Positions 9,679 to 39,439 of a stretch of 64,000 nucleotides of DNA are shown here, in pieces; within the stretch, counting starts at the first letter, position 1; each line of letters starts with the position of its first letter. The translations under genes were made by a program, and so were the position numbers. This DNA is from Patiria pectinifera (lineage: Eukaryota; Echinodermata; Asteroidea; Valvatida; Asterinidae). The stretch covers positions 9,450,863 to 9,514,862 of the forward strand of contig CM057135.1 of assembly GCA_029964075.1 (NCBI GenBank). The letters run 5' to 3'. A model generated the notes under the pieces. The model was not told the origin of the DNA, searched no databases, and saw only the letters and a program-made list of their open reading frames with translations.

Positions 9679-10122
9679 ATGCGATCACCATATAATCATC
9701 GAGAATGTTTTTTTAATTTGTGAAACGTGCGGTGAAATAGTTTCACGTTACTTTGATTTTTCGGCAGAAAATGCGCAAGAAGATCGTATCAATTGGTCCA
9801 TTTAAAAATTAAAAATAAAAAGAAACGTGTGGAGCAACTGATTCTGTCTGTGTCTCCAGATGAAGACTCAGAAGATGTCCAAGAAACAGCCAATAAATAT
9901 AACAAGCTCGTTAATTACAAAACATTGAGGGGGAACGGATGCGTAAAACGACCGTTAATATCCGCGTGTTATCATCACGTCGTTGGATTAGACAAAGAAC
10001 GAGTAAGAGATTTATTTAAAATGACTCAAAATCAATTTAATAAAGCACTAAAAAGATACGATGACCGCTACAATAAAGGCGGGGCTGAGGGTGACACCCT
10101 AAGAGGTGAAATAGAGGTATAA
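9679..10122 (+). pseudogene. TFIIB-like transcription factor, copy A (5'-truncated, frameshifted)
   Basis: Homologous to 38951-39439. The first residues are missing and the match starts at CDHHIIIENVFLICETCG, the zinc-ribbon-like Cys-x2-His...Cys-x2-Cys segment. A TAA and frameshift occur near 9806, and the frame then continues as KKKRVEQLILSVSPDEDS to a stop at 10120-10122. The second half (YNKLVNYKTLRGNG, then VRDLFKMTQNQFNKAL) looks like one cyclin-type repeat. In copy A this gene keeps its natural C-terminus, which copy B lost. It converges on the gene ending at 10151. A hairpin with stem CTCGGTA/TACCGAG (about 10123-10160) lies between the two stops. Confidence 0.65.
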
Positions 10123-10150
10123 CTCGGTAGATCGCCTTCATAATAATTAT

Positions 10151-10810
10151 TTACCGAGAATTTGAACTTGTAAGTTTTTTCGATAAGAGATTTTTTTTTT
10201 CCTTTGCCAACCGTTCATCTACCCATTTTTTAACTTCTTTCTCAAAGTCTGTATCGTTTTTAATTTTTTGAAGCTTTGTGCTGGTCTTTGTTCTATTTTT
10301 TTGCTTAAGCTCGTTAAATTTTGCGAGCTCTTTCGTAATCAATAAGAACTCTTCGTGCGATATATCTCCGTCGTTGATGGCTTGAGACACGTATTCTTCA
10401 ATCGTGTTAAGTTTGGAGTCTGCTAATATTTTAATCTGGTCGTGCTTTTTCAGCTTGGCGGATAATCGCTTAGACGCGATTCTAAGCAGAATATCTACAC
10501 CAAAAGCGCCTATAAACGTTCCTTCTAGCACCAATCCAACGGGGGCTGATATAACACCCAAGAGAGCGGGAATACTGACAGCCCCGCTATAGCCCCCAAT
10601 CCTTCTAATCCTATCTCTACGTAATTAATAGTGTCGATCATTCTCTTTATTTTTTTATAAGTGCGCTCTCGGTGGTCTCTCTCTTTCAAGATTAAAGATC
10701 GAATCTCTTCAATCTTTTTAAGTCTGTACACTTTTGTTTCTTCGTTACTATTCAATCGGAGTACATCTCCAGAAATATCGGGGTATAAACGCCTTACTAT
10801 CTATACTCAT
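10151..10810 (-). pseudogene. Coiled-coil/membrane protein of unknown function (copy A only)
   Basis: The ATG at 10810-10808 (MSIDSKAFIP) is preceded directly by TATATTAAAAC. A frameshift follows within about 30 nt, then a Lys/Arg-rich helix (YRLKKIEEIRSL, RERTYKKIKRMIDT), a glycine-rich hydrophobic segment (IGLEGLGAIAGLSVF), a second frameshift near 10555, another hydrophobic segment and a long charged helix with ISHEEFLLITKELAKFNELK. It ends at 10151. Similar proteins (hydrophobic middle, D.ISDEEF-like helix) recur in invertebrate genomes in my memory, but I know no function. Copy B has deleted this gene. It converges on the TFIIB-like gene. Confidence 0.5.
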
Positions 10811-10835
10811 GTTTTAATATAAAAAGATTTTAAAA

Positions 10836-11370
10836 TTAAACGATCTCCAACTCTATCATTATACTCAACCCCTTGTTGTTGATGATCTGTCCTTTTTCAC
10901 CTATGATTGAAAATGTCAGTTTGTCGATTATACCGTTTTTAAGTTTTTTGAAATCCTCGACTCTATCAGGCTGGGGATCGCGCGTACCCACGGGTACGAT
11001 TTTTAAGATATCAGACGGTCGACCATCGAGGAAATGTTCACTCGTACTTAATTGCGGGCAGCGAATAAACAAAAATTTAAACGGATTAACGTTGTAAGAC
11101 CCCGTATACACCACTTTGGGTACCAGTCTTCCTTTGGGTAAATTGAGTAATCGAAAAACTTCTCTGTTTAAACGCAATTTGAGTTTCACGTCGGTTACCA
11201 CCAACGTCACCTTTTTAGATTCTCTAATCATTCGAAAATTTACCCCGGGTATAGAATTTAAAATGAAATCGAACCAATCGACGTCATACCACCCCGGTGG
11301 TATGGTGACCGAACCGGCGACTTCGGCTGGTAAGGGGGGTAAATGACTCGGAGAAATAAATCTAAATCAT
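10836..11370 (-). pseudogene. Candidate minor capsid/penton-like protein (copy A only)
   Basis: The minus-strand frame reads FRFISPSHLPPLPAEVAGSV, then TIPPGWYDVDWFDFILN, then a beta-rich body including LRLNREVFRLLNLPKGR, FIRCPQLSTSEHFLDGRPSD and LTFSIIGEKGQIIN, and stops at 10838-10836. Only the C-terminal 131 residues follow an ATG (11231). The open frame extends upstream to about 11360 with a disrupted start. The layout (VTIP-PG-Y near the N-terminus, a surface loop with CPQL, beta-rich C-terminus) resembles the FYVTLPSNSS family at 1-350, so I infer a capsid-associated protein. Copy B lacks this gene. Confidence 0.45.
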
Positions 11371-11612
11371 CACCCGACACGATAAGACTTCTTCGTATTG
11401 TTACACCAGCCTCTCTTATTGTTCTCACCCTAGGTGTATATATTATATATGTATATATTCTAGCGCTATCTTTTTACCTTAGGAGATTTGATGGTATCTT
11501 TCATATAAATTTCTTAATAAAAATATAAGCGTATTGCGTTTTACACTGTTTAGGGAAGCTTCTCGTTTTTTATTGTGCACAAGTTCATGTGCGTTACTTA
11601 TTTGATTTTTTT
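11371..11612. other. Intergenic segment in copy A
   Basis: No gene seen; AT-rich, with a possible TATA-type string (AATAAAAATATAAGCG) around 11516-11531. Confidence 0.4.
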
Positions 11613-11959
11613 TTACTGGATCGATTCTAAAGCAGAGTCTAGTCTATCTTCTTCGTACGCTTCTATAAGGTCGTTCATAACTCTATTAAAATCATTTTCG
11701 TCGTTAATTAAAAAGGCGTAGGGGTACTCGGGTACCAATTGCGCGATAAAATCTCTATCCGTTCTTATTACCGCATCTGGGTCGAGTTCACTGGGTCTTA
11801 TAGAGTCATCACGTCTTTTAGCTGGTTGTCCGTCTATTTGCGTATACCAATCAATCTCCGTGGCGCTGGAAATATAAAAATGTCCGGGGTTAAACATTAC
11901 CCTACGACGTCTTCTAATTTAAACGTCTGCTCATTTTGAAACAAGTGAAACGAATGCAT
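11613..11959 (-). pseudogene. Acidic protein of unknown function, copy A
   Basis: The start at 11959-11957 (MHSFHLFQNEQTFKLEDVV) is shared with copy B at 38635. A ~35-bp deletion and stop follow, and the main frame resumes as MFNPGHFYISSATEIDWYTQ at 11897 and ends at 11613 with DLIEAYEEDRLDSALESIQ. The second half has a conserved core with RPSELDPDAV and LVPEYPYAFLINDENDF. It is divergently transcribed from the gene starting at 12001, 41 bp away. I know no function. Confidence 0.5.
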
Positions 11960-12415: not shown

Positions 12416-13592
12416 GTTTTTGTAGGTACGCAAACACCTGGTGTTGGTGCAGGTGTTGGCGATGGCGCGGTTGGGGCATCCACACCTCTCACGCTAGCGA
12501 CGATGCTACTCACTATCGTGCTGATGGCTAAACTAAAGCAGCTAAAATACTCACTATGGTCACACCTTGTTCTCTAAACAGAGTTCTAATCTTTTCCGCC
12601 AGAGTCGTGTCACCGCCTAATATTTTAATAATCGTTTCTTTGATTCTAGCGATCTGGCTTTTGAGCCCTCGTTCGTTGGTTTTTGCGGCTTCTAATCTGG
12701 CGATCTTTCAACGTTCAAGTCGCTCAATTTATCGTTTAACTCTCGTCGACCCTCTTCGCTTTGCGCTTCGTCGAGTTCTTGTCTCGTGGCTGCAATCTCT
12801 TGGTCTAGTACTGTGGGACGCGCTAAATTAAGTTCTACGTTACCTCTCAACGTCTGAAGACTTTTGTCTAAACCCTGGAGTTCTCTGTAATTCAATCCTT
12901 CCGTTTGAGCGCCGGTGTCTTGTTCTAAATCGTCTATAATCTCGATTACCTCATCGGTGACGCTGGGTAGTTCTGTCACGGGGATACTCTCGGGTTGCAT
13001 CGATCGCAGTTGTTGACTTTGATCGTCACTGAGTGTCTTACGTTCGTAATGCGTAAAACCTAATTTGTTTCTAATAAAATCTCTACCATTTAAACCCATC
13101 TTTCTTACATTTTTCTCTATTGACCTCAGAGTCAAACATCTGTTTGGGTTTCTTTGATCCGTTAACCTTACTAAGTCTTTACCAGTGTCATAAAATAAAC
13201 CGTCTGTTTAGAGAATACATTTTTCGTATCTCGGGGATATTGGTTTATTGTATATGTTATAAGTATCGTAAAACTCATCAACGCGGCCATTAATGAACAT
13301 GCTTCTTCCTTGATCTAAAACGTCATCTATGTCGGCATTAGTATCAAACGTATCGTCCCAATCCAGATTGGTCTCTGCTATATCATCATCGTCGTAATCA
13401 TCATCGTAAAACTCATAAACGCGGCCATTAATGACCATGCTTCTTCCTTGATCTAAAACGTCATCTATGTCGGCATTAGTATCAAACGTATCGTCCCAAT
13501 CCTGATTGGTCTCTGCTATATCATCATCGTCGTAATCATCATCGTAATCGTAATCATTAATGGGGGTCAAAGTCGAATCCTCCCTCAGCCAT
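12416..13592 (-). pseudogene. Acidic/coiled-coil/membrane-active-like protein, copy A (C-terminus deleted)
   Basis: The ATG at 13592-13590 (MAEGGFDFDP) is followed by a frameshift, an Asp-rich region and the segment YDTYNIYNKPISPRYEK, another frameshift near 13205, then SIEKNVRKMGLNGRDFIRNK and a long coiled coil (LDKSLQTLRGNVELNLA). The Asp-rich block of about 150 nt is duplicated in tandem (DDDDIAETN.DWDDTFDTN appears twice), which copy B does not show. After the Pro/Thr linker a deletion removes the amphipathic and membrane segments present in copy B at 36880-37060. It lies immediately upstream (in transcription) of the deletion junction near 12416. Confidence 0.6.
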
Positions 13593-13614
13593 TTATTTAA
13601 TAAACCTATTTAAA

Positions 13615-13857: not shown

Positions 13858-13889
13858 CGTTTTTAATATAACAATTTTTAAATTGCTGT

Positions 13890-14105: not shown

Positions 14106-14272
14106 CTGTCTATTGTGCTCACTAAAGCTTTACCCTGCTATATTCGTCTAGGATTTTTAGTCTTGGTCACTCTCGTTACCGTCGGTGATGGCGTTGTTTT
14201 TATCGGTTTAGGTGTCTCTGTCTCTGCTGGTTGGGCCGCAGGCGTTGCTGTCGCTGCTTTCTGATCTTCCAT
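14102..14272 (-). pseudogene. Small Pro/Thr/Lys-rich basic protein (in-frame stop)
   Basis: The ATG at 14272 (MEDQKAATATPAAQPAETET) leads to PSPTVTRVTKTKNPRRI, then TAG at 14140-14138, then QGKALVSTIDR and TGA at 14104-14102. Without the single TAG it would be 56 residues. Its 3' end overlaps the next start as ATGA and its 5' end overlaps the end of the upstream gene, the tight packing expected of a virus. A basic, disordered protein of this kind could bind DNA or the capsid interior; that is inference. Confidence 0.45.
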
Positions 14273-14713
14273 TTATTATATTAGGTTTATTAAATTTCAA
14301 ATAATTTGTTGTGATAATCGTAGCAACTAGGGGTGATATTAAGGTTCCGTACTTGTAACAAACGTCGCTCAACATAGCAGCCATACTCGAGCTTATAATA
14401 GGATCAGAACTCAAGTCGTTGGTGAGTTCTTCTTCAGAATCTATAGTGACGTTATATCCTAAAACTTGTACTGGTGTAACAACGGATAACACTCGCGAAA
14501 ACAGACTTAAAGTGTATTTACCAACGGTTTGAACAATTTCATTTCCAAATTTAGTTTCGTACAGATGATATAATTTGTCTAGTTCTTTACTGTCAAGAGC
14601 TTCGATATGTTTAACGGTGTATTCCTTTCCCAAGTACTTTCTAGAGTTTCCGGCTGCTACGATGATGATGATGATAATAGCCCAAACTGCAAATACTCGA
14701 ATATTGCTATCAT
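14208..14713 (-). pseudogene. Membrane-anchored protein of unknown function (KEYTVKHIEAL family), copy A
   Basis: The likely start at 14713-14711 (MIAIFEYLQF) matches copy B at 35273, followed by a hydrophobic run (WAIIIIIIVAAG) and a frameshift. The main body is GKEYTVKHIEALDSKELDKL, YETKFGNEIVQTVGKYTLSL, EEELTNDLSSDPIISSSMAA and a second hydrophobic stretch (ISPLVATIITTNYL). The true C-terminus probably lies near 14280, because the next gene starts at 14272 and the remaining frame is its shadow. The element-wide order places it right after the ATPase. Confidence 0.5.
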
Positions 14714-15075: not shown

Positions 15076-16162
15076 ATTTGGTTTTTTACCCGAATGTGTA
15101 CTTAAGAGATTTAAATTTCCGTCTTCCAAGTTCAATTGAGCATCCATGACCAAAAATACGTACATCGTGAGGTCACCTTGACTTTCGGCTTCTCTGTTAA
15201 ATTGAATGTTGATGCCTCCTCCGTCTCCGAGTTTCCTACCGGATCCGTGAGCAGAATTGTCGTCGTTACTTCTAAAATCGAGCCACCACAGACCGTACTT
15301 GTTTTTTAGATAGTCTCCGAGGTCAAGACCCGTCAAATTTAAGTCTTTGGATACTCTGCGCCCAAAATACCCTTGAGACTCCTGATGGGTTGATTGACGC
15401 TGACGTTCCAAAGCGTGTCCGATCCGTTGACGGATCTAACTTCTAGCGAGTGGATTTTATCAAACAGATATTTCATTAAACCCTGGTGTTTATTCCTGAT
15501 GGTGATAGCTAGGTCTCTGTTGGTCACCACTTCGTATTCGAGAGACAAGTCTGAAATAGAATACATCGCCGCTGTATCTGAACTGTTGACTACTTTATCG
15601 TGATAGTTAAACTTCATCTCGTACGTCAGAGGTTGTTTTAAACCGCTGGGGTAAAAAGGGTGATGCGAAGTCAGTATGTCAATGTCTAGGGGAATACAAT
15701 ATCTGTTACCATAGGCATCCGCGATACCTTGATCTTTACCGTTGTTGGCGCCCGCGAGTTCTCGAGCCCCAGTTCTTAGTTTAGACACGTTTTCTTTTTC
15801 TATGCCCGAGTACGAGTCTTGCCCGAGTCTTTAAAGTTGTGATACACGTCGGCGTGACGATAACTCATGATTTCGTTACCTTGAAGTCTGACGCTGATTT
15901 CGCTGACTACATTTCTGGCCAAATTGCCAAAAATTGTTCAATTGTTGTCACCTCCACCTTCGAATCTAAATTGAAAGCTAGTTTACAAGTGCCGGGTATG
16001 ATCACGTCGTCTACGCCCAATTGAGGAAACTTCCCTCAGCGTTTGCCCCGCCGATATACTACTAGGATTATGGGTAATGACCACCTCTTTTCTCTCACCC
16101 TTGATAGATCTGGGTATTTTTAATAGCCTGCTGGGATTGAGCTTTTTTCCATACGCATTCAT
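15076..16162 (-). pseudogene. Candidate major capsid protein, copy A
   Basis: The start at 16162-16160 (MNAYGKKLNPSRLLKI) matches copy B at 33419. Homology continues to NIQFNREAESQGDLTMYVFL and AQLNLEDGN near 15110, where a deletion removes the stop. Frames switch near 16000, 15810 and 15390. Between 15390 and 15330 about 170 bp present in copy B is absent, joining SLKGIL directly to the segment GRRVSKDLNLTGLDL. The length (about 415 aa when complete), beta-rich composition and position before the ATPase fit a double-jelly-roll capsid, but fold prediction is needed. Confidence 0.6.
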
Positions 16163-16184: not shown

Positions 16185-16606
16185 TTAAAGGTATCTGTAA
16201 GCCAAGTAACCCACCAATAGCGTTCCTCCCGCGATAAACACGAGTTCTCTTTCTATTTGTTGGTCGCTAGGCACGTAAAAATCTTCGAGTTTGGGTTCGT
16301 GGGGTAATTCGACGTTTTCTCCGGTCATTTCGTTGTAGTAACGCAACGCTTGGTCAACGTCGTAAAATGCTTGTTTAGAAACATTTTGCTTTCTGATACG
16401 TTCATTGAGAAAATCGAGTCGTTTCGTTTGTTCTCGTTGCCAATGATCTCTGGCGGCCGAGAGTTGTTCTTCAGCTAAATTGTGTCTCTTACGCTCCTCA
16501 TCGGCATCACTCTGTTTCAGACTTGAAAATAAAAAAAGTTTGAACCCGTAAAAGCTAAGGCGTTGACGATCGCACCTCCTATCATCATTACAACAGCTGA
16601 CGCCAT
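16185..16606 (-). pseudogene. Two-TM coiled-coil protein, copy A
   Basis: Begins MASAVVMMIGGAIVNALAF, a hydrophobic N-terminal helix, then a frameshift in a T run (two extra T relative to copy B near 16538). A charged helix follows (ERKRHNLAEEQLSAARDHWQ, REQTKRLDFLNERIRKQNVS), then YNEMTGENVELPHEPKLEDF, and a C-terminal hydrophobic helix (ELVFIAGGTLLVGYLAYRYL) that ends at 16185. The N-in/C-in architecture with a coiled coil suggests a virion membrane or scaffold protein. It is divergent from the integrase, 38 bp away. Confidence 0.6.
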
Positions 16607-16644: not shown

Positions 16645-17448
16645 ATGATGGATAAACTTCAAAAACTGTATTATATAGCCCGAGCGGTTATTGGCGAGGT
16701 GACAGCGCCGTCGACCATTTACACGATAAAACAAAAATCGATAAAAAGGTAATCAGAGATTGGCTTAAAAAACAAGCGATGTGGCAAATGTATTTACCGG
16801 GTCCTGCGTATGTACCCAGGCCTACGAGTACTTCGCGAGAGTTTGAAACACCAAACGACTTTCACCAAAATGGATGTGCTATACCTACCCTGAGATAAAG
16901 TAAAATGCAAGACTTATAAATACGCATTGACGGTTGTCGACGTTGCGAGTCGATACCACGAAGCAGAACCTTTGGTTTCTAAAACGGCGGATTCCACGCA
17001 GGATGCTATCGTCAAGATTTACGCGAGATCTCCTTTGAGTTACCCCAAAACGTTGAGAGTAGACGCTAGCCAAGAGGCTGTTTGGACATCAGTACGCTCA
17101 AGAAATATTAAATCCCGAGAGTAGAAATACGCAATGGGTCGAGCGATTACTCAGCGTGATTAAGGCTATAAACGATGAAACGACAAGATTAATAGCTAAA
17201 GCGCCGTCACAGGCGGTTAAACTAGAACAGGTCCGGCAATCGCCGGCTAACCCCGTTAAAACAAAAGAGCAACAATTACCGCAAGACGCCATGGTTAGAT
17301 ATTTATATAAACGAGTCAATTTAAAATGATTGACGGTAAAAAAGTCACGACGGGTCCTACTCTTTATTAACTTCAAAACGGGCCAAAAAGGAGTTTTGTG
17401 AGACAAGAGCTTCAAGTCGTACCCGAGGACACGCAATTACCGCCTTAG
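16645..17448 (+). pseudogene. DDE integrase of the virus-like element, copy A
   Basis: The start ATGATGGATAAACTTCAAAA at 16645 (second ATG 16648) gives MDKLQKLYYIARAVIG. Early frameshifts follow, then the catalytic region with Asp in FTKMDVLYLP, the segment YALTVVDVASRYHEAEPLVS and Asp in LRVDAS. At about 17075 a ~130-bp deletion removes the region holding the catalytic Glu, joining LRVDA directly to the sequence encoding VWTSVRSRN. Later pieces include NDETTRLIAKAPSQAVKLEQ and the C-terminal NGPKRSFVRQELQVVPEDTQ, ending at 17448. This integrase is clearly different from the chromodomain type at 361-4757. Its 3' end overlaps the polymerase 3' end. Confidence 0.75.
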
Positions 17449-17835
17449 TGACCAAAAGCCAGCGTGTTTATACCGTCCGGCAAAATGTACCTCTTTGTGT
17501 CCAACGGACTCAACGATAGTTTATTCTGAGATATGGTGTAAAGGATGTGATTTTCCGATTTAATGTGAGTCATGGTTTCGTAATGAGATTTCTTGTTTAA
17601 AATGCAGTCGTAGCAGTGTCGGTGTTTTAATTTTAATTAGAGGTGACCGATTTTGTGACACCCTTGGCTTTTTTGAGGTTGATGTCAGCGGTTAAAATGG
17701 AGTGTATTTACCGATCACTTTCTTATTGGTTGGATCGTACAAAGGATGATCCGTCGGATAATTCGAAAGGTCGTATTGTTGTCCGTTTTGCTGCATATCT
17801 TTGTATACGTCGTCCGTGTGCACTACGAGTACCAA
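17412..17835 (-). pseudogene. Family B DNA polymerase, C-terminal piece, copy A
   Basis: Minus-strand pieces match copy B: VYKDMQQNGQQYDLSNYPTD, the segment corresponding to NKKSHYETMT, DTKRYILPDGINTLAFGH, then a stop at the position where copy B has Tyr-Gly. Several stops and frameshifts are present. Relative to copy B about 110 bp between IGK and the PLTST segment is missing. The match ends abruptly at 17835 where foreign DNA begins. Confidence 0.7.
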
Positions 17836-18462
17836 GCGCCCGATGTCCAAAACAGTTACAATTCGTGCACTTATGAGTGAATTTACAATTCGCCTGGTTA
17901 AAGGCTAAGCAGAAGCCACCGCCTTTGGAGGTACAATGCGCAAAAGTGGCACCAGAACTAGGTGGTGCAGATGGAGTGGAATTGGCGAGTACGGCAGCGG
18001 CTGCTACCGTAACCCACAACTCCATGTCAATGCCCCCCAGGAACGGTTCGGATAAGCTTCTTGGCGCAGACGAAACTGTTCGTCATACGCGTGCCATCCT
18101 AAGCCGCTAAGCTGGGAGGCAACCATTCTCACCGTCTCCGCGTATTTGAGTAATTCGCCTACCCGGAGAGGGTGGCGCACCGCATAAATGGCAGTTAAGG
18201 TGTGAAAGGCAGTTAGCCATTTATCAATGGTATCGAGTTTCCTTTTGGGAGACTCGGGCATGCAGACAATAGCCCCATTTTCAAGCGCTAACTTTAAGGT
18301 TTTATCATTTGGCTGCACCAGAAAAGTCGCAGCCGGATCATGAAAAAGTGAAGACAGATCTTCGTACTTCCCACTCCATACTTTCTCTTTAATCCCAATG
18401 AGTACTCGAAACCCTAATGGAGCCTCGCCCTGGCCTGAAAAGACCGAGTTGGGCCTAGACAA
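17836..18462 (-). pseudogene. Gag-like protein with Cys/His zinc motif
   Basis: The upstream frame (18462-18004) reads ...GFRVLIGIKEKVWSGKYEDL and WLTAFHTLTAIYAVRHPLRV, ending in WHAYDEQFRLRQEAYPNRSW. After a frameshift it continues with a hydrophobic/Ala-rich linker and GFCLAFNQANCKFTHKCTNC, a Cys-x5-Cys-x3-His-x-Cys-x2-Cys cluster. The order 'W.TAF..Y..I...P.R..ELL.Y', 'YD..FR', then a C3H-like knuckle resembles Gag-like fragments of DIRS-type (tyrosine-recombinase) retroelements common in invertebrates. I could not place the family with certainty. Confidence 0.55.
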
Positions 18463-19081
18463 AGACTGCTCAAGTGCTGGGGCCGGTACAGGCCGAGTAT
18501 CGCCAAGCTGGGAGACGGAACCGTCAACCCGTGCAAAATTAGTAGAACTATTAATACTACCACTACTATCTAGTGAGCCAGTCGTGGCTGGCTCGCAAAA
18601 AGAAGCGCGATAATAATGTTCATTGCAGGCAATGATGACACCCCAGACTCATCCCGCCTTGCTCGTTGGCTCTCAGCTCCACTCGTTCCTGGTGCAGGTT
18701 CGATCGGCAGCTCCGGTTATTCTAACGCTGGCTGCTGACTTCTAACTACCGGCGTTGGCACATCGTCAATCCGAACACGACGTGCCCTCACCCCAGACTG
18801 CGTAGCCCATGTACGGGGTCTCCCACGCATGACATTCGGAAGTATAAACTTGAAGCTGAACAGGAGAATAGCAATAACTATGTTTCCACATTCAGTTACT
18901 GCAACGAAGTGGTCTTCTCCACGTGACAACAGCCCACACCTTGCCTCTGTCTAACCACGTTGCTGCTGGGCTAGCCAATCCGCTCATTAATGCATTATTC
19001 ATGATCTCCAATCCATCCCTTAAACATAAAACCCATTCGTGCTGCGTGTAAAATATTGTATCGTTCAGTCGATAAAATTGA
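17836..19081 (-). mobile_element. Retroelement fragment replacing the centre of the copy A polymerase
   Basis: At 17835/17836 and 19081/19082 the alignment to the copy B polymerase breaks. About 2.6 kb of polymerase (29.10-31.69 kb in B) is replaced by 1.25 kb of unrelated sequence that encodes a Gag-like protein on the minus strand. No target duplication is visible, so this is a deletion plus insertion, not a clean transposition. Confidence 0.7.
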
Positions 19082-19958
19082 TTATCCGTGTACAATCCTA
19101 AGGCAGCTCTCAAACACCATCTCAAACACTCATTATCTTCGTTTTGTATGTTGATCATCGCCTGTTTAATTTTAAGATGTTCGGGTAGATTTATGTAAGA
19201 ACCACCTCTCGCGGGGTTCAACCTGCTTACGTTGATGTATAACGCGAGTGTTTTATCGACTACCCAACCCGATCCTTGATTCGTATACCTTCCACCCTTT
19301 TTTTAATAGCTCATCGGTCGTTTTATTTGACTTTGATTTTAAACGGCTCTCTGCTTGCTATAATGAATAGCTTACATCGTTTCGATTATATCGTCTTGTT
19401 TGGTTTGTTGATACCTTATTTTTAGTACAAGCTCTATTTTTAAACCTCTGAGCTCTCTCAATTTCGACTTGATTTTACTTCCTATTTGTTCCTTGTGAGA
19501 ATAATAAAAAACTTGACTAAATCGTTGTTATAACGTCTTGGGTTTAATTACCAGTTTCTATCCCTAACAGTCCTGAATATTCCAATTTAAATATGATTTT
19601 GCATACCCCCTAGGGAGTTAGGGTTAAAGTATTTTTTAAACCTCGTTTCTCTAAAAGCTGCCTCTGTGAAGTCTTTGGGTTGTCTATAATTTTTAATCGC
19701 CGAGATTAGATCTTTTTTTTTTTTTTTTTAAATCGGCCTTCTAGATTAATTCTAGATTATGATCGTCTACAATTGTTTTAAGTTGACGTAGCGTCCTTTA
19801 TTCAAGTTTATAAATTGACTCTCATAATTGTTAATCCCCTCGATATACACTTTACGAGACATTTTCATTGTGCGGCATTTTAATTATCGTTGCACATAAT
19901 CACGCAGCGTTACTTTATTCCATCGAGAAAATCCTTTAACGGTCGGTCTGATTATATT
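19082..19958 (-). pseudogene. Family B DNA polymerase, N-terminal piece, copy A
   Basis: Minus-strand segments match 28267-29090 of copy B: NKVTLRDYVQR, RKVYIEGINNYESQF, ALYINVSRLNPARGGSYINL and NIQNEDNECLRWCLRAALGL. Frames are heavily shifted, and there are two long T runs (about 19711-19730). Here the codon that is TAA in copy B (29026) is still CAA, showing the stop in B is secondary. The homology begins near 19958 with GGATTTTCTCGATGGAATAA. Confidence 0.65.
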
Positions 19959-31200: not shown

Positions 31201-32167
31201 CTACGTCACGTTGCAGTTGTATCTCAAACTCGGCTTGAAACTTAAAAAGGTGCATTAAGTGTTGCAATTTAGCCAAGCGCCTTGGATGGCATCTTACATA
31301 GACAAACACACGCAACTCTGAACAAAAGCGACCTCTGATTTTGAGAAAGACTTTTTTTAAACTGATGAATAACAGCGCGTTTGGTAAGACGATGGAAAAC
31401 GTCAGAAACCGGATTGACAGTTACCTACTCAGGGACAGTAACGATGACGATCGAGATAAATACGAAAAAAATATACAGAAACCGAGCTACAAAACGACGA
31501 CGTCATTTTCAGAGTGCAAATTGTCATTTGTCGAAAAGTACAAGACTAAAACCGTGTGAAACAAACCGATCTATTGCGGAGTGAGTATTTTAGATCTATC
31601 TAAGACGCTGATGTACGATTTTTATTACAACCATTTGAAAGACAAGTACAAAGAGAAAATCAGGCTGATGTACACAGATACAAACAGTTTGGTACTCGTA
31701 GTGCGCACTGACGACGTATACAAAGATATGCAGCAAATCGGGCAACAATACGACCTTTCGAATTATCCGACGGATCATCCTTTGTACGATCCAACCAATA
31801 AGAAAGTGATCGGTAAATGTAAAGACGAGTTTGGAGGTAAAATAATCAAAGAAGTCGTTTGCATAAGGCCTAAAATGTACTCCATTTTAACCGCTGACAT
31901 CAACCTGAAAAAGCCATGGGTGTCACAAAATCGGTTACCTCTAAGAAATTAAAACACCGACACTATTACGACTGCATCTTAAACAAGAAATCTCATTACG
32001 AAACCATGACCATGATTGGATCAAAAAATCACATCCTTCACACCGTATCTCAAAATAAACTATCGTTGAGTCCGTTGGACACAAAGAGGTACATTTTGCC
32101 GGACGGTATAAACACGCTGGCTTTTGGTCACTACGGCGATAATTGCGTGTCCTCGGGTACGACTTGA
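28249..32167 (+). pseudogene. Protein-primed-type family B DNA polymerase, copy B
   Basis: Recognisable parts in order: an N-terminal region (RKVYINGIKNHEAQF; RFRNNFRNRELIPRLF; SGWVLKKIMALYININRFNP; CLRWCLRVALGLYTD), exonuclease motif I (VVYADFES, codons at 29398-29406), motif II region (VFHNLQNYDAHLIM), motif III region (YHDLYVTTD), polymerase motif A (YLDANNLYGWAM), motif B (LMNNSAFGKTMEN) and motif C, which reads YTDTNS (about 31671) where an Asp is expected for Asn. It ends at 32167. Breaks: frameshift near 28295, an A9 run at about 28502-28510, TAA at 29026-29028, a deletion near 29100-29170, further shifts near 29760, 29830, 30065, 31256, 31550 and 31915, and a MITE at 30492-30676. Polymerases of this kind replicate Polinton and adenovirus-type linear genomes from a protein primer. 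Confidence 0.85.
30492..30676. mobile_element. 185-bp hAT-like MITE inside the copy B polymerase
   Basis: Ends CAGTGGCGTCGCC and GGTGACGCCACTG are inverse repeats. Flanks CCAGGATT (30484-30491) and CCGGGATT (30677-30684) are an 8-bp duplication with one difference. The interior is rich in C and G runs. Excising it would restore the polymerase frame across the junction, so it inserted after integration of the virus. Confidence 0.85.
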
Positions 32168-32936
32168 AGCTATTGTCTCACAAACCTCTTTTTTGGGCCG
32201 TTTTGAAGGTAATAAAGAGTAGGACGTTTTCCACGTGGAAGATGTCTACGCTCCAAATGGGATCCGTGGCTCTTCTCGAGGTTCCACCCTCTTGGTCGCC
32301 CGGGTAATATAAATATCTAACCATGGCGTCTTGCGGTAATTGTTGCTCTTTTGTTTTAACGGGGTTAGCCGGCGATTGCCGGACCTGTTCTAGTTAAACC
32401 GCCTCTGACGGTGCTTTAGCTATTAATCTTGTCGTTTCATCGTTTATAGCCTTGATCACGCTGGGTAATCGCTCGACCCATTGCGTGTTTCTACTCTCGG
32501 GATTTAACATTTCTTGAGCGTACTGATGACCAAACAGTCTCTCGGCTAGCGTTCGATTAAATCTTTCTACGATACCCTGCAATCTCGACGTTTTTTGAGG
32601 TCAGCCATTTAAAAGCGCCTTTAAATTCGGTACCGGCGTCTACTCTCAACGTTTTAGGGTTATTTATAAGTCTTGCCTTTTACTTTATCCCAGGGTAGGT
32701 ATAGCATATCCATTTGATGGAAGTCGTTTGGTGTTTCAAACTCTCGCAAAGTACTTGTAGGCCTGGGTTCATACGCGAGACCCGGTAGATAAATTTGCCA
32801 AATAGCTTGTTTTTTTAAGCCAATCTCTGATTACCTTTTTATTGATTTTGGTTTTATCATGTAAATGGTCGACGGCGCTTTCACCTCTCCAATAACCGCT
32901 CGGGCTATAATACAGTTTTTGAAGTTTATCCATCAT
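32131..32936 (-). pseudogene. DDE integrase of the virus-like element, copy B
   Basis: Starts at 32936 or 32933 (tandem ATG), giving MDKLQKLYYSPSGYWRGESA, then one extra A in a run (frameshift near 32825), PRPTSTLREFETPNDFHQMD with the first catalytic Asp, and WDKVKGKTYK. A deletion of about 100 bp then removes the segment retained in copy A (YALTVVDVASRYH). It continues with LRVDAGTEFKGAFKWL (second Asp) and GIVERFNRTLAERLFGHQYA (Glu). The C-terminus has MVRYLYYPGDQEGGTSRRAT and an SH3-like tail. The gene converges on and overlaps the polymerase 3' end (32131-32167). Stops occur after APSEAV and QKRGL. Confidence 0.75.
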
Positions 32937-32977: not shown

Positions 32978-33394
32978 ATGGCGTCAGCTGCTGTAATGAT
33001 GGTTGGAGGTGCGATCATAAACGCCTTAGCTTTTTCGGGTTCAAACTTTTTATTTTCAAGTCTGAAGGATGATGGCAGCGAAGAGCGTTAGAGACACGAT
33101 TTAGTGACAGAACAACTCTCGGCCGCCAGATATCAGTGGCAACGAGAACGAACGAAACGACTCGATTTTCTCAACGAACGTATGAGAAAGCAAAATGTTT
33201 CTAAACAAACATTTTACGACGTTGACAAAGCGTTGCGTTACTACAACAAAATGACCGGAGAAAACGTCGAGTTACCCCGCGAACCCAAACTCGAAGATTC
33301 TTACGAAACTAGCGACCAATAAATAGAAAAAGAACTGGTCTTTTTCGCGGGAGGAACGCTATTGGTGGGCTTCTTGGCTTACAGATACCTTTAA
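32978..33394 (+). pseudogene. Two-TM coiled-coil protein, copy B (one in-frame stop)
   Basis: Begins MASAAVMMVGGAIINALAFS (hydrophobic helix), has TAG after DDGSEER and a TAA after YETSDQ, and otherwise stays in frame to the C-terminal helix ELVFFAGGTLLVGFLAYRYL, ending at 33394. The helical middle (ERTKRLDFLNERMRKQN) fits a coiled coil. About 138 residues in total, as in copy A. First gene of the rightward late block, 24 bp before the capsid candidate. Confidence 0.65.
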
Positions 33395-33418: not shown

Positions 33419-34663
33419 ATGAATGCGTATGGAAAAAAGCTCAATCCCAGCAGGCTATTAAAAATACCCAGATCTATCAAGGGTGAGAGAAAAAGAGGTG
33501 ATCATTACCCACAATCCTAGTACTATATCGGCGGGGCAAACGCTGAGGGTCAAGTTTCCTCAATTGTGTGTAGACGACGTGATCGTACCCGGCACTTGTA
33601 AACTAGCTTTTAATTTAGAACTCGAAGGTGGAGGTGACAACAATAATTTTTAGCAATTTGGCCAGAAATTTAGTCAGCGAAACCAGCGTCAGGCTTCAAG
33701 GTAACGAAATCGTGAGTTATCATCACGCCGACGTGTATCACAGCTTTAAAGACAATTGGCTCAACAGCTCGACGACTCGAAACATGGCGTACTCGGGCAT
33801 AGAAAAAGAAAACGTGTCTAAACTAAGAACTGGGGCTCAAGATGCTAATTCGGGTGCCAACAACGGTAAAGATCAAGCTATCGCGGATGCCTATGGTAAC
33901 AGATATTGTATTCCCCTAGACATACCCTTTTTACCCCAGCGGTTTAAAACAACCTCTGACGTACGAGATAAAGTTTAACGATCACGATAAAGTAGTCAAC
34001 AGTACAGATACGGCTGCGATGTATTCTATCTCAGACTTGTCTCTCGAATACGAAGTGGTGACCAGCAGAGACCTAGCTATCACCATCAGGAATAAACACC
34101 AGGGTTTAATGAAATATCTGTTTGATAAAATCCACTCGCTAGAAGTTAGATCCGTCAACAAATCGGACACGCTTTGGAACGTTAGCGTCAATCAACCCAT
34201 CAGGAGTCTCAAGGGTATTTTGTTTTTGTTTAAAGATCTCACGGAAAAAAATCCGCAGCGATTTTATAATCCAAAACTAACCAAAACATCGGTGACTGTA
34301 GAAGGTAAGCCAAATCAACTCTACAGTCAAGGCATGTTTCAGTATCAACACTGGAACGAAATTTTAAAGTTCTTTGGAGACAGCGATACCAAAAGCGGGC
34401 GTGGAGTAACCAAAGACTTAAATTTGACGGGTTTTGACCTCAGAGACTATTTAAAAAACAAGTACGGTGTGTGGCTCGATTTTAGAAGTAACGACGACAA
34501 TTCTGCTCACGGATCCGGTAGGAAACTCGGAGACGGAGGAGGCATCAACATTCAATTTAACAGAGAAGCGGAAAGTCAAGGTGACCTCACGATGTACGTA
34601 TTTTTAGTCGTGGATGCTCAATTGAACTTGGAAGACGGAAATTTTAAATCTCTGTTAAGCTAA
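33419..34663 (+). pseudogene. Candidate major capsid protein, copy B
   Basis: Starts MNAYGKKLNPSRLLKIPRSI with GTATAAAAATAAA directly upstream. An extra A near 33493 shifts the frame, a stop occurs near 33652, and about 15 bp is missing near 33935. From 34019 to the stop at 34663 the frame is uninterrupted for 214 codons (SDLSLEYEVVTSRDLAITIR; NPKLTKTSVTVEGKPNQLYS; YLKNKYGVWLDFRSNDDNSA; GSGRKLGDGGGINIQFNREA). It is beta-rich, about 415 residues, located next to a packaging ATPase. I recall similar proteins in cnidarian and mollusc genomes beside the same partners. A double jelly-roll fold is expected but unproven here. Confidence 0.65.
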
Positions 34664-34664
34664 A

Positions 34665-35075
34665 ATGACACAACCGCATTGCGCTTTAATCGTCGGCAAA
34701 ACAAATTCGGGTAAAACCAAATGGATTTTGGATCTGTTAGAGTCAGACTATAAAAACGTATTTGAAGTTATAGTCATCATTTGCCCTACCGTTGTTAAAA
34801 ACAAAACGTACATCGAAAGAAAGTGGGTTCACGCAGATCCGGAGGTATACCTCTGCGATCTGGAATTGTACAAGATGACGCTCAACGAAGCGATCGACAT
34901 TTACATGAAAATATTCGAAGGTGTTGCTACGCTGTTTATCGTAGACGATTGCTCTTCGGATCAAGAGATTAAATATCGTAAAAAGACGTGCGCGCAAAGC
35001 AAAATGGCGTTTAGCGGAAGACACGTCAATCACAGCTGTTGGTTATTGACTCAAACGAGCAACTTGAGTAGCTAG
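34665..35075 (+). CDS. A32/FtsK-like genome-packaging ATPase, copy B (C-terminus replaced)
   Basis: Starts one base after the capsid stop (TAA-a-ATG). MTQPHCALIVGKTNSGKTKW holds the Walker A motif GKTNSGKT (residues 11-18). LFIVDDCSSD is Walker B, followed by FSGRHVNHSCWLLTQ as the sensor-like segment. In copy A the protein continues with KYNSVLKD. Here the last five codons (TSNLSS) come from an inserted 22-bp tandem repeat, so the extreme C-terminus is altered. Otherwise it is the best preserved enzyme in the two copies. Such ATPases pump DNA into capsids in the PRD1-adenovirus and Polinton lineage. Confidence 0.75.
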   Translation: MTQPHCALIVGKTNSGKTKWILDLLESDYKNVFEVIVIICPTVVKNKTYIERKWVHADPEVYLCDLELYKMTLNEAIDIYMKIFEGVATLFIVDDCSSDQEIKYRKKTCAQSKMAFSGRHVNHSCWLLTQTSNLSS

Positions 35076-35272: not shown

Positions 35273-35653
35273 ATGATAGCAATATTCGAGTATTTGCAGT
35301 TTTTGGCTATTATCATCATATCGCTTAATCTATCGTTTTACACACACGAATACCTTCGATTTTGTAACAAATTTGCAAAAGCTACAACAAAATTAAATTC
35401 GTTTCTAATTAAATGGAGGACCTAAAACTTGCTTGAACGAACGAGCAAGATCACAACGCAGTACATAAAGATCATTTGTGCGGTGTCGTAGCAGCCGGAA
35501 ACTCTAGAAAGTACTTGGGAAAGGAATACACCGTTAAACATATCGAAGCTCTTGACAATAGGAACTCGAAAAGCTGTATCATCTGTACGAAACTAAATTT
35601 GGAAATGAAATTGTTCAAACCGTTGGCAAATACACTTGAAGTCTATTTACGCC
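35273..35653 (+). pseudogene. KEYTVKHIEAL-family membrane protein, copy B (truncated, with insertion)
   Basis: The start MIAIFEYLQFLAIIIIS at 35273 matches copy A. About 150 bp not present in A follows (35325-35480), then VAAGNSRKYLGKEYTVKHIE and a frame-shifted KLNLEMKL segment. At about 35650 it is joined by a deletion of about 0.75-1 kb to the next gene, losing the second half. Confidence 0.5.
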
Positions 35654-35815: not shown

Positions 35816-35837
35816 TTTAAAAAGGTTTATTAAATAA

Positions 35838-37098
35838 ATGGCTTAGGGAGGATTCGACTTGGATCCCGTTGACGGTTACGATTACGATGAAGATGATTAC
35901 GACGATGATGATGTAGCAGAGACCAATCTGGATTGGGACGATACTTTTGATACTACTGCACCACCAATCCTCACTACCGACATAGATGACGTTTTAGATC
36001 AAGGAAGAAGGATGGTCACTAATGGTCGCGTTGATGAGTGTTACGATACTTATAACATATACAATAAACCAATATCTCCGAAATACAAAAATGTATTATC
36101 AAAACAGACGGTTTATTTTATGACACTGGTAAAGACTCAGTAAGGTGAACGGATCAAACAGATTTTTGACTCTGAGGTCAATAGAAAAAAATGTAAGAAA
36201 GATGGGTTTAAACGGTAGAGATTTTATTAGAAACAAATTAGGTTTTACGCATTATGAACGTAAGACACTCAGTGACGATCAAAGTCAACAACTGCGATCG
36301 ATACAACCCGAGAGTATCCCCATGACAGAACTACCCAGAGTCACCGATGAGGTAACCGATATTATAGACGATTTAGAACAAGACACCGGCGATCAAACGG
36401 AAGGATTGAATCACAGAGAACTCCAGGGTTTAGACAAAAGTCTTCAGACGTTGAGAGGTAACCTAGAACTTAATTTAGCGCGTCTAACAGAACTGGACCG
36501 AGAGATTGCAGCCACGAGACAAGAACTCGACGAATCTCACAGCGAAGAGGGTCGACGAGAGTTAAACGATAAATTGAGCGACTTGAACGTTGAAAGATCG
36601 GCCAGATTAGAAGCCACAAAAGCCAACGAACGAGGGCTCAACAGTGAGATCGCTAGAATCAAAGAAACGATTAATAAAATATTAGGCGACGACACGACTC
36701 TGGCGGAAAAGATTAGAACTCTGTTTAGAGAACAAGGTGTGACCGTAGTGAGTATTTAAGCCGCTTTTAGTTTAGCCATCGGCACGATAGTGAGTAGCGT
36801 CGTCGCTAGCGTGAGAGGTGCGGGTGCCCCAACCACACCATCGCCAACACCAACACCTACACCACCAAAAGGTGGTATCAACGAGTGGATTTCAAAACAA
36901 CTCGCTAATTTTGCATCTGCTCTTAAAAAACTCGGAGCGAGCGCGTTGGGTGCTCTGCCGGGTATCATAGGCAGCGTACTCAGTTGGATATTTAACGCGC
37001 TGAGTAGGTCTGTATCGTGGTTGGCCGAACACGTGTGGGCTTTGTTTTTGGGTGTGGGAGCCTTGGTTTGCGTACCTGCAAAAACGATGGTAGTATAG
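35838..37098 (+). pseudogene. Acidic/coiled-coil/amphipathic membrane-active-like protein, copy B
   Basis: The ATG at 35838 has TAG as its third codon. It continues GGFDLDPVDGYDYDEDDYDD, then the single Asp-rich block and YDTYNIYNKPISPKYKN, with a frameshift near 36140. The frame then stays open through SIEKNVRKMGLNGRDFIRNK, a ~120-residue coiled coil (ELNLARLTELDREIAATRQE) and DDTTLAEKIRTLFREQGVTV to TAA at 36757-36759. That TAA is a single base from Leu, and the same frame continues into a hydrophobic helix, a Pro/Thr linker, an amphipathic stretch (KKLGASALGALPGIIGSVLS) and a final TM (HVWALFLGVGALVCV). The end is at 37098. The order coiled coil, TM, amphipathic, TM suggests a virion membrane-disrupting or internal protein, analogous in position to adenovirus pVI. 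That analogy is inference. Confidence 0.6.
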
Positions 37099-37133
37099 TT
37101 GTAATCAAGTTTAAAAACAAACAGCAACATAAT

Positions 37134-37167: not shown

Positions 37168-37187
37168 GTGTGAGATTAGAGTGTGAC

Positions 37188-37412
37188 TTATGGCGTTGCC
37201 TCGTAAGCCAAAATACCCATACCAACGATAGCTATTAATATTCCTACCGTCAACGATATTTTTTCGTCTTGGTGAGTTTGTAGTTTCGTAGGCTCTTGGG
37301 TTAAAACTGTAGGTGTTGGAGTTGGTGTTGGTGCTGGTGTTGGTGCTGGTGTTGGTGCTGGTGTTGGTGCTGGTGTTGGTGCTGGTGTTGGTGATATAAT
37401 ATCGTTCGTCAT
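37188..37412 (-). CDS. 74-aa Pro/Thr-repeat, single-TM protein
   Basis: MTNDIIS followed by about nine PTPA/PTPT repeats (a GTTGGTGCTG minisatellite on the plus strand), then VLTQEPTKLQTHQDEKISLT and a C-terminal hydrophobic helix (VGILIAIVGMGILAYEA). Its ATG overlaps the TGA of the upstream gene as ATGA (37409-37412). The frame is intact. No counterpart remains in copy A. Confidence 0.55.
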   Translation of the reverse strand: MTNDIISPTPAPTPAPTPAPTPAPTPAPTPTPTPTVLTQEPTKLQTHQDEKISLTVGILIAIVGMGILAYEATP

Positions 37413-38575
37413 AGGCTCTGGGGTGTTGGTGGCGCGACGTCATCGGTGTCATCAAAAGAGTCGTCCGGTAGAGGTTGTGAGTTGAAATCTAACACCAAAC
37501 CAGTTTTCATACTCTGGGTAGCGATTTGAAGATTATTGTTATAGCCGTCGTGCGTTCCAACCCTCAAGTTCATATCCGATGGAATTAAATACAACCCCGG
37601 TTTCACGACAAAATGTAAAGGTGTTCTGGCATACTGCAAAGAGGCTTGAAATTGATCGATACTCGTTTCCATGTCGTCTACTGCATCGATGATATCTTCA
37701 ACGATGACGTTAATTTGTGTCTGAGCGTCTAATCCGGTGCCCGGTGATAATACGCTCGTTTTTGTTTGAGCCTGCGCACCGAGTAAAGCGTAGACGTAAG
37801 ATCTGATCGATTCGTTGATCTTTATGATTCCCACGGAGGTAAACGAACTTTTGGAGGGTATAAAATCTAACCAAGCCATTTTGACGATGTTGTCTTGTTC
37901 GAGATAACCCTTTCAATGCTTAAAAATTAAAATCGTCGAGTGTGGTCGTGTTTTTATCATAGTCTAACGGCAAGAGTAAAAACGATTTTGTTTTTTCGTT
38001 CCAAAGAAAAAGCCGACCTAAGCCATAAGTCTTTTGATCTCTCGTCTGTTTAAAAGACTTATTTTGATCGATGGCAAACGTCCGACAGATGTTGGTAAAT
38101 GCTCCATGATCATAGGTGTTTCTGAGAGCGTCAAACGAGTCTTCTCCCGGTATTGCTATGGCCATGTCGTTTAATATCCTTCTAACCGTAAAGTATAGAT
38201 GAAAATTAAATAAGGCTTCAACGTAACGGTTGTTCGAGTTTAAAATATCGATTCCAACACCACAGCCCGTTGTAGCGCAATAGATCGCAAAGTTTAACTG
38301 ATTTGATAAAAAGACATGGGGTCTATTTTCCAACGAAGTAAAGCATCGTTGGTATTGAGGCGAGATATTTTATAGTCTGAAATTAAGTCGGGGAACGAGG
38401 TTAAAAACGTGTTAGACGCGTTGACCGTAATCTCGAGTTCGCCAGTGAGATACGGACTGTCTAATACATGCGCTGGGGTGGTAGCTTGTCGTTTAGCTAC
38501 ATTTTGATTTAATTGTCTCTTTACCTGATAAGCTATCGATTGTATCTGCTTTTTAAACGACTTAAAATCACTCAT
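37409..38575 (-). pseudogene. Candidate capsid-associated protein (about 385 aa), copy B, in three frame pieces
   Basis: Three consecutive minus-strand frames: 38575-38294 (MSDFKSFKKQIQSIAYQVKR ... RWKIDPMSF), 38333-37920 (LSNQLNFAIYCATTGCGVGI ... LFNFHLYFTVRRILNDMAIA ... FLLLPLDYDKN) and about 37900-37409 (DNIVKMAWLDFIPSKSSFTS ... LQYARTPLHFVVKPGLYLIP). The pieces overlap or abut by a few bases at T/A-rich runs. That is best explained by two indels in one gene of about 385-390 codons; three separate genes is the alternative. The first junction is clear, the second less so. It starts at a divergent promoter and is second in size only to the capsid and polymerase genes. Confidence 0.5.
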
Positions 38576-38634
38576 TATTTTAGTTTCAGTTTTAATATAA
38601 AAAGACTTTTAATATAAAAAGACTTTAAAATAAA
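38576..38634. promoter_or_regulatory. Bidirectional promoter candidate, copy B
   Basis: 59 bp between divergent starts at 38575 (-) and 38635 (+). It contains two tandem copies of CTTTTAATATAAAAAGA (38590-38625), where copy A has one. Confidence 0.6.
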
Positions 38635-38968
38635 TGCATTCGTTTCACTTGTTTCAAAATGAGCAGACGTTTAAATTAGAAGACGTCGTAGATAATCTAA
38701 ACGGTAAAAAAAATTGTACGCGTAAAACGGGTAATGTTTAACCCCGGATATTTTAATATTTCCAGCGCCACGGAGATTGATTGGCATACGCAAATAGACG
38801 GACAACCAGCTAAAAGACGTGATGACTCTATAAGACCCAGTGAACTCGACCCAGATGCGTTAATAAGAACGGATAGAGATTTTATTGCGCAATTGGTACC
38901 CGAGTACCCCTACGACTTTTTAATTAACGACGAAAATGATTTCAATGGAGTTATAAACGACCTGATAG
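38635..38968 (+). pseudogene. Acidic protein of unknown function, copy B (3' truncated)
   Basis: Frame MHSFHLFQNEQTFKLEDVVD followed by NLNGKKNCTRKTGNV and a stop; one base later the main frame runs MFNPGYFNISSATEIDWHTQ to LINDENDFNGVINDL (about 38966). There a deletion of about 1.5 kb relative to copy A fuses it to the 3' end of the oppositely oriented TFIIB-like gene. Copy A keeps the natural C-terminus. Confidence 0.55.
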
Positions 38969-39439
38969 ATCCGCCGAGTATACCTTTATTTCACCCTCGG
39001 CCCCGCCTTTATTGTAGTGGTCATCGTATCTTTTTAGTGCTTTATTAAATTGATTTTGAGTCACTTTAAATAAATCTCTAACTCGTTCTTTGTCTAATCG
39101 AACTACATAATAAAAACACGCGGCAATTAACGTCCGTTTAAGGCATCCGTTTCCCCTCAATGTTTTGTAATTAACGAGCTTGTTATATTTATTGATTGTT
39201 TCTTGGACATCTTCTGAGTCCTGCTCTGGACACACAGAAAAAATCAGTTTCTCCACAGTTTTTCTTTTATTTCTCTTTAAAACGGACCAATTGATACGAT
39301 CTTCTTGCGCATTTTCTGCCAAAAAATCGAAGTAACGTGAAACTATTTCACCGCACGTTTCACAAACTAAAAAAACATTCTCGATGATTATATGGTGATC
39401 GCACTTATCCCCAAGTTGCGGCGTCTCAAAGTATTCCAT
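38951..39439 (-). pseudogene. TFIIB-like transcription factor, copy B (C-terminus replaced)
   Basis: Starts MEYFETPQLGDKCDHHIIIE at 39439. A zinc-ribbon-like C13-x2-H16 ... C26-x2-C29 is followed by a charged linker (ENAQEDRINWSVLKRNKRKT) and a cyclin-type helical region (YNKLVNYKTLRGNGCLKRTL, then VRDLFKVTQNQFNKALKRYD). The last 10 or so residues (YSADLSGRL) come from the fused neighbour after a deletion. TFIIB-like proteins bridge TATA-bound TBP and RNA polymerase; a virus-encoded one would act at the element's own TATA-type promoters. The frame is otherwise intact over 150 codons. Confidence 0.65.

What the first reader, a model, noticed from the sequence alone, without database searches (positions are those of the whole stretch)
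9679..39439. Two inverted, independently decayed copies of a compact Polinton-like virus with a TFIIB-like gene
Copies A (9679-19958) and B (28249-39439) share gene order and differ mainly by lesions. Seen in sequence: family B polymerase motifs, a DDE integrase unlike the chromodomain type at 361-4757, an ATPase with Walker A/B, and a zinc-ribbon plus cyclin-like protein. About nine further genes have no function I can assign. TFIIB-like factors are well known in giant viruses but not part of the textbook Polinton gene set, and no protease was found. This could be a distinct lineage between Polintons, adintoviruses and Polinton-like viruses.
Basis: partly seen in the sequence, partly recalled or inferred. 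Interest (0 to 1): 0.88.

Follow-up and report, generated by a model that had tools for sequence, protein, structure and literature searches.

The report
Decayed copies of an abundant Polinton
The window holds two broken insertions of a virus-like mobile element (a Polinton relative) whose capsid gene is unbroken in at least 99 other places of the same genome and which carries a small gene that resembles, at least in part, a host transcription factor.

Summary
Two inverted, decayed copies share gene order; 11 of 13 blocks are 84-97% identical, the two at the polymerase end 70-75%. Copy B runs to about 40807. Several 'genes' in the finding are pieces of longer ones. The element is of Polinton/Maverick type: family B polymerase with its motifs, rve integrase without a detected chromodomain, A32-like ATPase, and a capsid protein whose relatives hit Capsid_N. 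New: the window copies are not typical. The genome (613.5 Mb) lists 150 TFIIB-like genes (147 without stops) and 100 capsid genes (99 without stops), both capped, best-first lists; other genes were seen in few loci, some broken. One copy has 199-bp, 99.5% identical inverted repeats starting AGT and a 5-bp flanking repeat. The small gene is linked to the element (55 of 100 listed capsid genes) and constrained (pN/pS 0.16). Its TFIIB identity rests on a zinc ribbon: 18 columns beat 60 shuffles, the cyclin part did not, Pfam found nothing. No fold was obtained. A variant of a known kind is likely; a new lineage is not shown.

The parts
9677..10119 (+). Copy A, TFIIB-like gene, N-terminal part broken (2 stops), C-terminal part open
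   Evidence: tblastn with the intact 158-aa protein of L006
10154..10794 (-). Copy A, 218-aa gene of unknown function, in two frames
   Evidence: tblastn, 80% and 93% identity; no Pfam family above its cut-off
10842..11959 (-). Copy A, 387-aa gene in five pieces (includes 10839-11366 and 11616-11918)
   Evidence: tblastn; its C-terminal part has relatives P0122 and P0123
12059..12363 (+). Copy A, remnant of the 471-aa gene
   Evidence: tblastn, two pieces, 2 stops
12695..13609 (-). Copy A, coiled-coil-like and acidic genes
   Evidence: open pieces shared with B
14211..14651 (-). Copy A, helical gene next to the ATPase
   Evidence: tblastn 94% to the partial gene of L055
14691..15041 (-). Copy A, packaging ATPase, N-terminus missing, 1 stop
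   Evidence: tblastn 87%, q33-149 of 201
15103..16162 (-). Copy A, major capsid protein, broken (2 stops, frame changes, internal gap)
   Evidence: tblastn 71-92% to the 422-aa protein
16188..16600 (-). Copy A, 140-aa gene upstream of the capsid gene, in two frames
   Evidence: tblastn
16656..17445 (+). Copy A, rve integrase in four pieces
   Evidence: tblastn 87-94%; PF00665 3.2e-5 in one piece
17448..19961 (-). Copy A, family B polymerase, two ends only; middle lost, unmatched stretch at 17836-19081
   Evidence: tblastn, blastn gap
20145..20266 (.). Copy A, segment matching the polymerase end of one copy and, inverted, the other end of others
   Evidence: 71-79% to L070, L002, L003, L005, L009
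28293..32131 (+). Copy B, family B polymerase, eight tblastn matches, insertion at about 30487-30676
   Evidence: tblastn; Endonuclease_7-like piece 7e-4, below cut-off
32134..32924 (-). Copy B, rve integrase in five pieces
   Evidence: tblastn
32978..33391 (+). Copy B, 140-aa gene, 2 stops
   Evidence: tblastn
33419..34660 (+). Copy B, major capsid protein, frame changes; open stretch of 247 residues at 33920-34660
   Evidence: tblastn; 790 relatives
34665..35054 (+). Copy B, packaging ATPase, q1-130 of 201
   Evidence: PF04665 Pox_A32 6.6e-8; tblastn 92%
35413..35651 (+). Copy B, helical gene, truncated, 2 stops
   Evidence: tblastn
35847..37095 (+). Copy B, acidic, coiled-coil-like and amphipathic (Pro-rich plus hydrophobic) genes
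   Evidence: open pieces, the first two shared with A; no firm family
37197..38575 (-). Copy B, 471-aa gene of unknown function in four pieces
   Evidence: tblastn 46-90%; no Pfam family above its cut-off
38634..38970 (+). Copy B, start of the 387-aa gene, rest deleted
   Evidence: tblastn
38993..39439 (-). Copy B, TFIIB-like gene, open, last residues lost in the same deletion
   Evidence: tblastn 88%, q1-149 of 158; 90% to P0121
39440..40807 (.). Copy B, terminal region beyond the TFIIB-like gene
   Evidence: 83% to L032 (to 40807) and 90% to L004 (to 40421)

Best explanation
The two copies are old, separately damaged insertions of a Polinton/Maverick-type endogenous virus that has multiplied in this genome to at least a hundred copies with a capsid gene, nearly all of the listed ones open. 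The element (about 16 kb in the one copy measured) integrates with its own rve integrase at inverted terminal repeats, copies its DNA with a family B polymerase, probably protein-primed, and packages it with an A32/FtsK-like ATPase into a capsid of the double jelly-roll kind (inferred from family membership, not from a fold). At one end it carries a small gene for a zinc-ribbon protein. Its most likely role is a TFIIB-like initiation factor that brings the host's RNA polymerase II to the element's own, probably late, promoters. Shown: genes, copies, inverted repeats in one copy, linkage, constraint. Inferred: capsid assembly, protein priming, and the transcription role.
For: Inverted copies. 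Polymerase frame of 1329 aa with DFES, DANNLY, NNSVFG and YTDTDS in order. Integrase PF00665 1.5e-11 and ATPase PF04665 1.5e-9, both above cut-off. Capsid piece with 790 relatives; Capsid_N in 26 of 34 aligned sequences scanned. TFIIB-like gene: 147 of 150 listed genomic matches without stops; capsid: 99 of 100. In the one copy whose ends were fetched, TIRs of 199 bp, 99.5% identical, AGT end, TATGC on both sides; a second locus (L007) ends at the same base. 55 of 100 listed capsid genes have a listed TFIIB-like gene within 12 kb, all 55 on the opposite strand. pN/pS 0.16 (TFIIB-like) and 0.09 (capsid) in the 30 best copies of each; CX2H-X9-CX2C in 30 of 30; ribbon score 24.5 against a maximum of 18.0 in 60 shuffles.
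Against: The element's own capsid protein and P0001 have no Capsid_N match, a PDB profile search with the capsid family found no capsid, and no fold was obtained. No Pfam polymerase match to the polymerase. The TFIIB identity has no Pfam support, a PDB search with the gene found no TFIIB at E<=10, the cyclin repeats scored like shuffles, and hhalign's own probability is low (6.7; 25 for the ribbon alone). Both copy lists are capped and best-first, so they overstate intactness, and pN/pS rests on them. Among the few loci looked at, other genes are often not whole: the ATPase frame is split in 3 of 4 capsid loci, the integrase frame in 1 of 4, and the 218-aa gene is full length in 1 of 4 TFIIB-side loci.
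Confidence: 0.6

Rival explanations
1. The element is as described, but the small gene is a generic zinc-ribbon or helix-turn-helix DNA-binding regulator or replication helper, not a TFIIB relative.
For: Only the zinc ribbon scores (18 columns); the cyclin repeats do not. No TFIIB family in Pfam and no TFIIB chain in PDB. Weak HTH_23 match, 0.11, residues 102-149.
Confidence: 0.4
2. It is a member of an already described invertebrate Polinton group (the cnidarian-type capsid cluster, or mixtures such as Meld23486), in which the small gene has gone unremarked.
For: 790 capsid relatives exist, many in long contigs. PMC10120064 notes cnidarian capsids outside the main Maverick cluster (passages); PMC11071296 describes adintovirus-like polymerase and integrase joined to poxvirus-like virion genes (legend). 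AGT ends recall vertebrate Mavericks (passages).
Against: Listings of four library searches show no title or abstract start that reports a TFIIB gene in a Polinton (the papers listed were not opened); the protein search found one relative of the small gene.
Confidence: 0.55
3. A and B arose by one inverted duplication of a chromosome segment rather than by two insertions.
For: Inverted arrangement, about 8 kb apart.
Against: Identity is uneven (70-97%) and each copy has private losses. Third codon positions hold 109 of 242 differences (13 of 16 rows; the three polB N rows left out), which suggests divergence under constraint before insertion. Stretches beyond the copies do not match each other. 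The genome has many dispersed copies.
Confidence: 0.08

Closest known systems
Polintons / Mavericks (as in PMC4028283 and PMC8097293)
   Same: Family B polymerase, rve integrase, packaging ATPase, capsid gene, TIRs with AGT end, short target repeat
   Different: No protease found; penton not identified; target repeat 5 bp in the one copy seen (6 bp reported for vertebrate Mavericks); different gene order; extra zinc-ribbon gene; weak Endonuclease VII-like and LEM-like stretches in the polymerase
Adintoviruses (definition in PMC11071296)
   Same: Type of element with PolB and rve integrase
   Different: No chromodomain found in the 333-aa integrase; OTU domain not found; hexon similarity not tested against adintovirus references
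Meld23486-type mixtures (PMC11071296, figure 7 legend)
   Same: Polymerase and rve integrase joined to virion genes with large-virus affinity (here Pox_A32 ATPase, Capsid_N in capsid relatives)
   Different: No sequence of Meld23486 was at hand; a TFIIB-like gene is not mentioned in the parts read
Nucleocytoviruses with TFIIB-like factors (recalled)
   Same: TFIIB-like factor, A32 ATPase, Capsid_N capsid family
   Different: About 16 kb, integrase with TIRs, no viral RNA polymerase seen in the proteins scanned

Membership tests
Polinton/Maverick | Family B DNA polymerase of protein-primed type | tested here: inconclusive
   Catalytic motifs present in a 1329-aa frame, but no Pfam polymerase match; terminal-protein domains not tested
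Polinton/Maverick | rve integrase | tested here: met
   PF00665 1.5e-11, 44.9 bits against a cut-off of 32.6
Polinton/Maverick | FtsK/A32 packaging ATPase | tested here: met
   PF04665 1.5e-9, Walker A and B-like motifs
Polinton/Maverick | Double jelly-roll capsid protein | tested here: inconclusive
   Capsid_N in 26 of 34 aligned sequences, not in the element's own protein; fold job not finished
Polinton/Maverick | Penton (minor capsid) protein | not tested
   The 387-aa gene is a candidate by eye only
Polinton/Maverick | Adenovirus-type protease | tested here: inconclusive
   None in ten proteins from other copies and in window pieces; three middle genes not scanned intact. Identified in 74% of 72 Polintons (PMC4028283)
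Polinton/Maverick | Terminal inverted repeats and target-site repeat | tested here: met
   One copy examined: 199 bp, 99.5%, AGT end, TATGC on both sides; not found in window copies
Adintovirus | Integrase with C-terminal chromodomain | tested here: not met
   No chromodomain match at E<=0.5 in the intact 333-aa protein
Adintovirus | PolB with N-terminal OTU-like domain | tested here: inconclusive
   No OTU match; weak LEM (emerin) match 0.043
TFIIB family (small gene) | N-terminal zinc ribbon | tested here: met
   CX2H-X9-CX2C in 30 of 30 copies; hhalign score above 60 of 60 shuffles, though its reported probability is low
TFIIB family (small gene) | Two cyclin-like repeats | tested here: not met
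   At 158 aa there is room for one at most; neither human repeat scored above the shuffle mean

The most novel reading that the evidence does not exclude
A compact Polinton carries its own minimal TFIIB (zinc ribbon plus one cyclin-like repeat) that retargets host RNA polymerase II to viral promoters, and this gene accompanies a large, recent expansion in one genome. That would make it the smallest virus known to me (recalled, not searched) with its own general initiation factor.
Probability: 0.3. Interest if true: 0.75.

Novelty: new variant of a known kind. Interest (0 to 1): 0.55.

Why it matters
If the small gene is a TFIIB relative, a virus of about 16 kb would bring its own basal transcription factor, a trait otherwise linked (recalled) to giant viruses, and one relevant to how Polintons and large DNA viruses are related. 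Independently of that, a genome with at least a hundred copies bearing open, constrained capsid genes is a good place to ask how Polintons spread.

Tried and rejected
Viral contig scans with the capsid piece, capsid family, TFIIB-like gene, ATPase piece and polymerase piece found no relatives. A genome-contig scan found one 4.6-kb contig filed under an archaeal MAG, with a capsid relative and, by eye only, ATPase, helical and polymerase genes. PHROGs gave nothing firm. PDB profile search with the capsid family gave no capsid. TIRs inside the two window copies: none. A first script missed the A-B matches through a filter error of mine; one search replaced it. A first identity count with uncorrected strands was replaced. 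The integrase of 361-4757 was not studied. Structure prediction: the capsid job was accepted and unfinished; the job for the small protein was never accepted. A TFIIB family search of the genome did not complete.
Full report
Observation. The window compared with itself gives two inverted copies, A 9680-20007 and B 28211-39403, in 13 blocks. Eleven blocks are 84-97% identical. The last two, at the polymerase end, are 74.7% and 69.5%, so the copies differ there by more than recent decay; recombination between related elements is one reading. Neither copy shows terminal inverted repeats.

Gene content. Ten proteins read from other copies in the same genome were placed on the window. In B orientation the order is polymerase, integrase (opposite strand), a 140-aa gene, capsid protein, ATPase, a helical gene, acidic and coiled-coil-like genes, a gene with Pro-rich and hydrophobic stretches, a 471-aa gene (opposite strand), a 387-aa gene, and the TFIIB-like gene (opposite strand). 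A also holds a 218-aa gene that B has lost. The finding counted pieces of the 387-aa, 471-aa and 218-aa genes as separate genes. Each of the ten placed genes is broken or incomplete in at least one window copy. B's TFIIB-like gene is open but lacks its last residues, lost together with the 218-aa gene and most of the 387-aa gene.

Identity. The integrase (333 aa) hits PF00665 at 1.5e-11 and the ATPase hits PF04665 at 1.5e-9, both above cut-off. The integrase is similar to retroviral integrase cores in PDB. The polymerase (1329 aa) has DFES, DANNLY, NNSVFG and YTDTDS in order, yet no Pfam polymerase match; it shows a sub-threshold Endonuclease_7 match (2.4e-4) and a weak LEM-type match at its start (0.043). 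The capsid piece of B has 790 relatives. Of the 34 sequences aligned (33 of the 120 listed relatives, plus the window piece), 26 hit Capsid_N, best 4.5e-5, but P0001 and the element's own protein do not. The double jelly roll is therefore inferred from the family. The fold job was still unfinished at the last poll.

The genome. Once the whole-genome search answered, the window was placed at G000:C7:9450863-9514862 of a 613.5-Mb assembly with 1020 contigs. With P0121 as query, 150 TFIIB-like matches were scored of 704 candidates, and 147 of 150 had no stop. With P0001, 100 capsid matches were scored of 968 candidates, and 99 of 100 had no stop. These are capped lists of the best-scoring matches: lower bounds in number, and biased to intact genes. 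Of the 100 capsid genes, 55 have a listed TFIIB-like gene within 12 kb, all 55 on the opposite strand. The 30 best copies of each gene are 97.5-99.8% (capsid) and 95.1-100% (TFIIB-like) identical in pairs, with pN/pS 0.09 and 0.16. Other genes were looked at in eight loci only, and there damage is common: the ATPase frame is whole in L040 but split in L041, L055 and L062; the integrase frame is split in L040; of four TFIIB-side loci the 218-aa gene is full length in L006 but shorter in L002, L010 and L022. So I do not claim whole intact elements in number.

Ends. In the one copy whose two ends I fetched, inverted repeats of 199 bp are 99.5% identical, begin with AGT, and are flanked by TATGC on both sides. 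Locus L007 ends at the same base. The end positions, C14:4030279 and C14:4046643, span 16365 bp; the stretch between them was not read through. AGT ends and 6-bp repeats are reported for vertebrate Mavericks (PMC8097293, passages).

The TFIIB-like gene. The intact protein has 158 residues. The protein search found one relative, P0121, on a contig of 5175 bases. P0122, a relative of the 387-aa gene, also lies on a contig of 5175 bases, so the two are probably neighbours there; the genome itself holds 99% matches to P0121, so it may come from the same species. A ribbon CX2H-X9-CX2C is kept in 30 of 30 copies. hhalign to human TFIIB aligned 18 columns of the ribbon at score 24.5, against at most 18.0 in 60 shuffles, with a low reported probability (6.7; 25 for the ribbon alone). 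The two cyclin repeats scored 11.3 and 10.6, below the shuffle mean of 12.9. Pfam has no TFIIB match, and PDB no TFIIB chain at E<=10. By eye the segment around LRGNGC-KR-LIAAC resembles the first cyclin repeat, but that is an impression. So the gene is a constrained zinc-ribbon gene linked to the element; TFIIB is its best single reading, not a result.

Comparison with print. I read the outline and sections 4, 6 and 11 of PMC11071308, the outline and sections 16, 18 and 25 of PMC11071296, part 1 of 4 of PMC4028283, and passages of PMC10120064, PMC10328495 and PMC8097293. Term searches for TFIIB within PMC4409740 and PMC7805220 gave no passage. Four library searches joining Polinton or Maverick with TFIIB terms list no paper whose title or abstract start reports such a gene in a Polinton; the papers listed were not opened, and most subscription journals are missing. 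Mixed elements are in print (Meld23486), as are cnidarian capsids outside the main cluster. By the definition in PMC11071296 this is not an adintovirus, because no chromodomain was found. A claim of a new lineage needs trees that I did not build, having no named references.

Verdict. A real Polinton-type element, seen here in two decayed copies, with many copies elsewhere in the genome whose capsid and TFIIB-like genes are open and constrained. The unusual part is the small zinc-ribbon gene. Its role as a TFIIB is likely enough to be worth a fold and a binding test, but it is unproven.

Noticed in passing
G000 contig C7 (holds the window): 36 of 150 listed TFIIB-like genes and 23 of 100 listed capsid genes lie on C7, which is 7.3% of the assembly (binomial p 1.7e-10 and 7e-7; copies may not be independent and the lists are capped).
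   Followed up: partly
L010 402-1204, L012 2334-3164: Beside the TFIIB-like gene some copies carry about ten tandem 83-bp units with a palindrome (AAAAAGCCACTC...GAGTGGCTTTTT); copies appear to differ in unit number.
   Followed up: partly
L041, L055, L062 (ATPase region) against L040: The ATPase reading frame is one 201-aa frame in L040 but two frames of 110 and 88-89 aa in the other three loci examined.
   Followed up: no
17836-19081: Stretch of copy A without counterpart in B, with open pieces such as 18007-18648 that match no Pfam family above its cut-off.
   Followed up: no
22828-27449 and 49198-57912: Another inverted repeat family, 85-94% identical, partly in the spacer between the copies.
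   Followed up: no
1801-2378: Minisatellite of 27.5 copies of a 21-bp unit.
   Followed up: no
L001: A 4.6-kb contig filed under a Diapherotrites archaeon MAG carries a relative of the capsid gene (43%), probably a misbinned eukaryotic or viral fragment.
   Followed up: partly
L072 895-1506: Array of about eight 74-bp units near the polymerase end of one copy.
   Followed up: no
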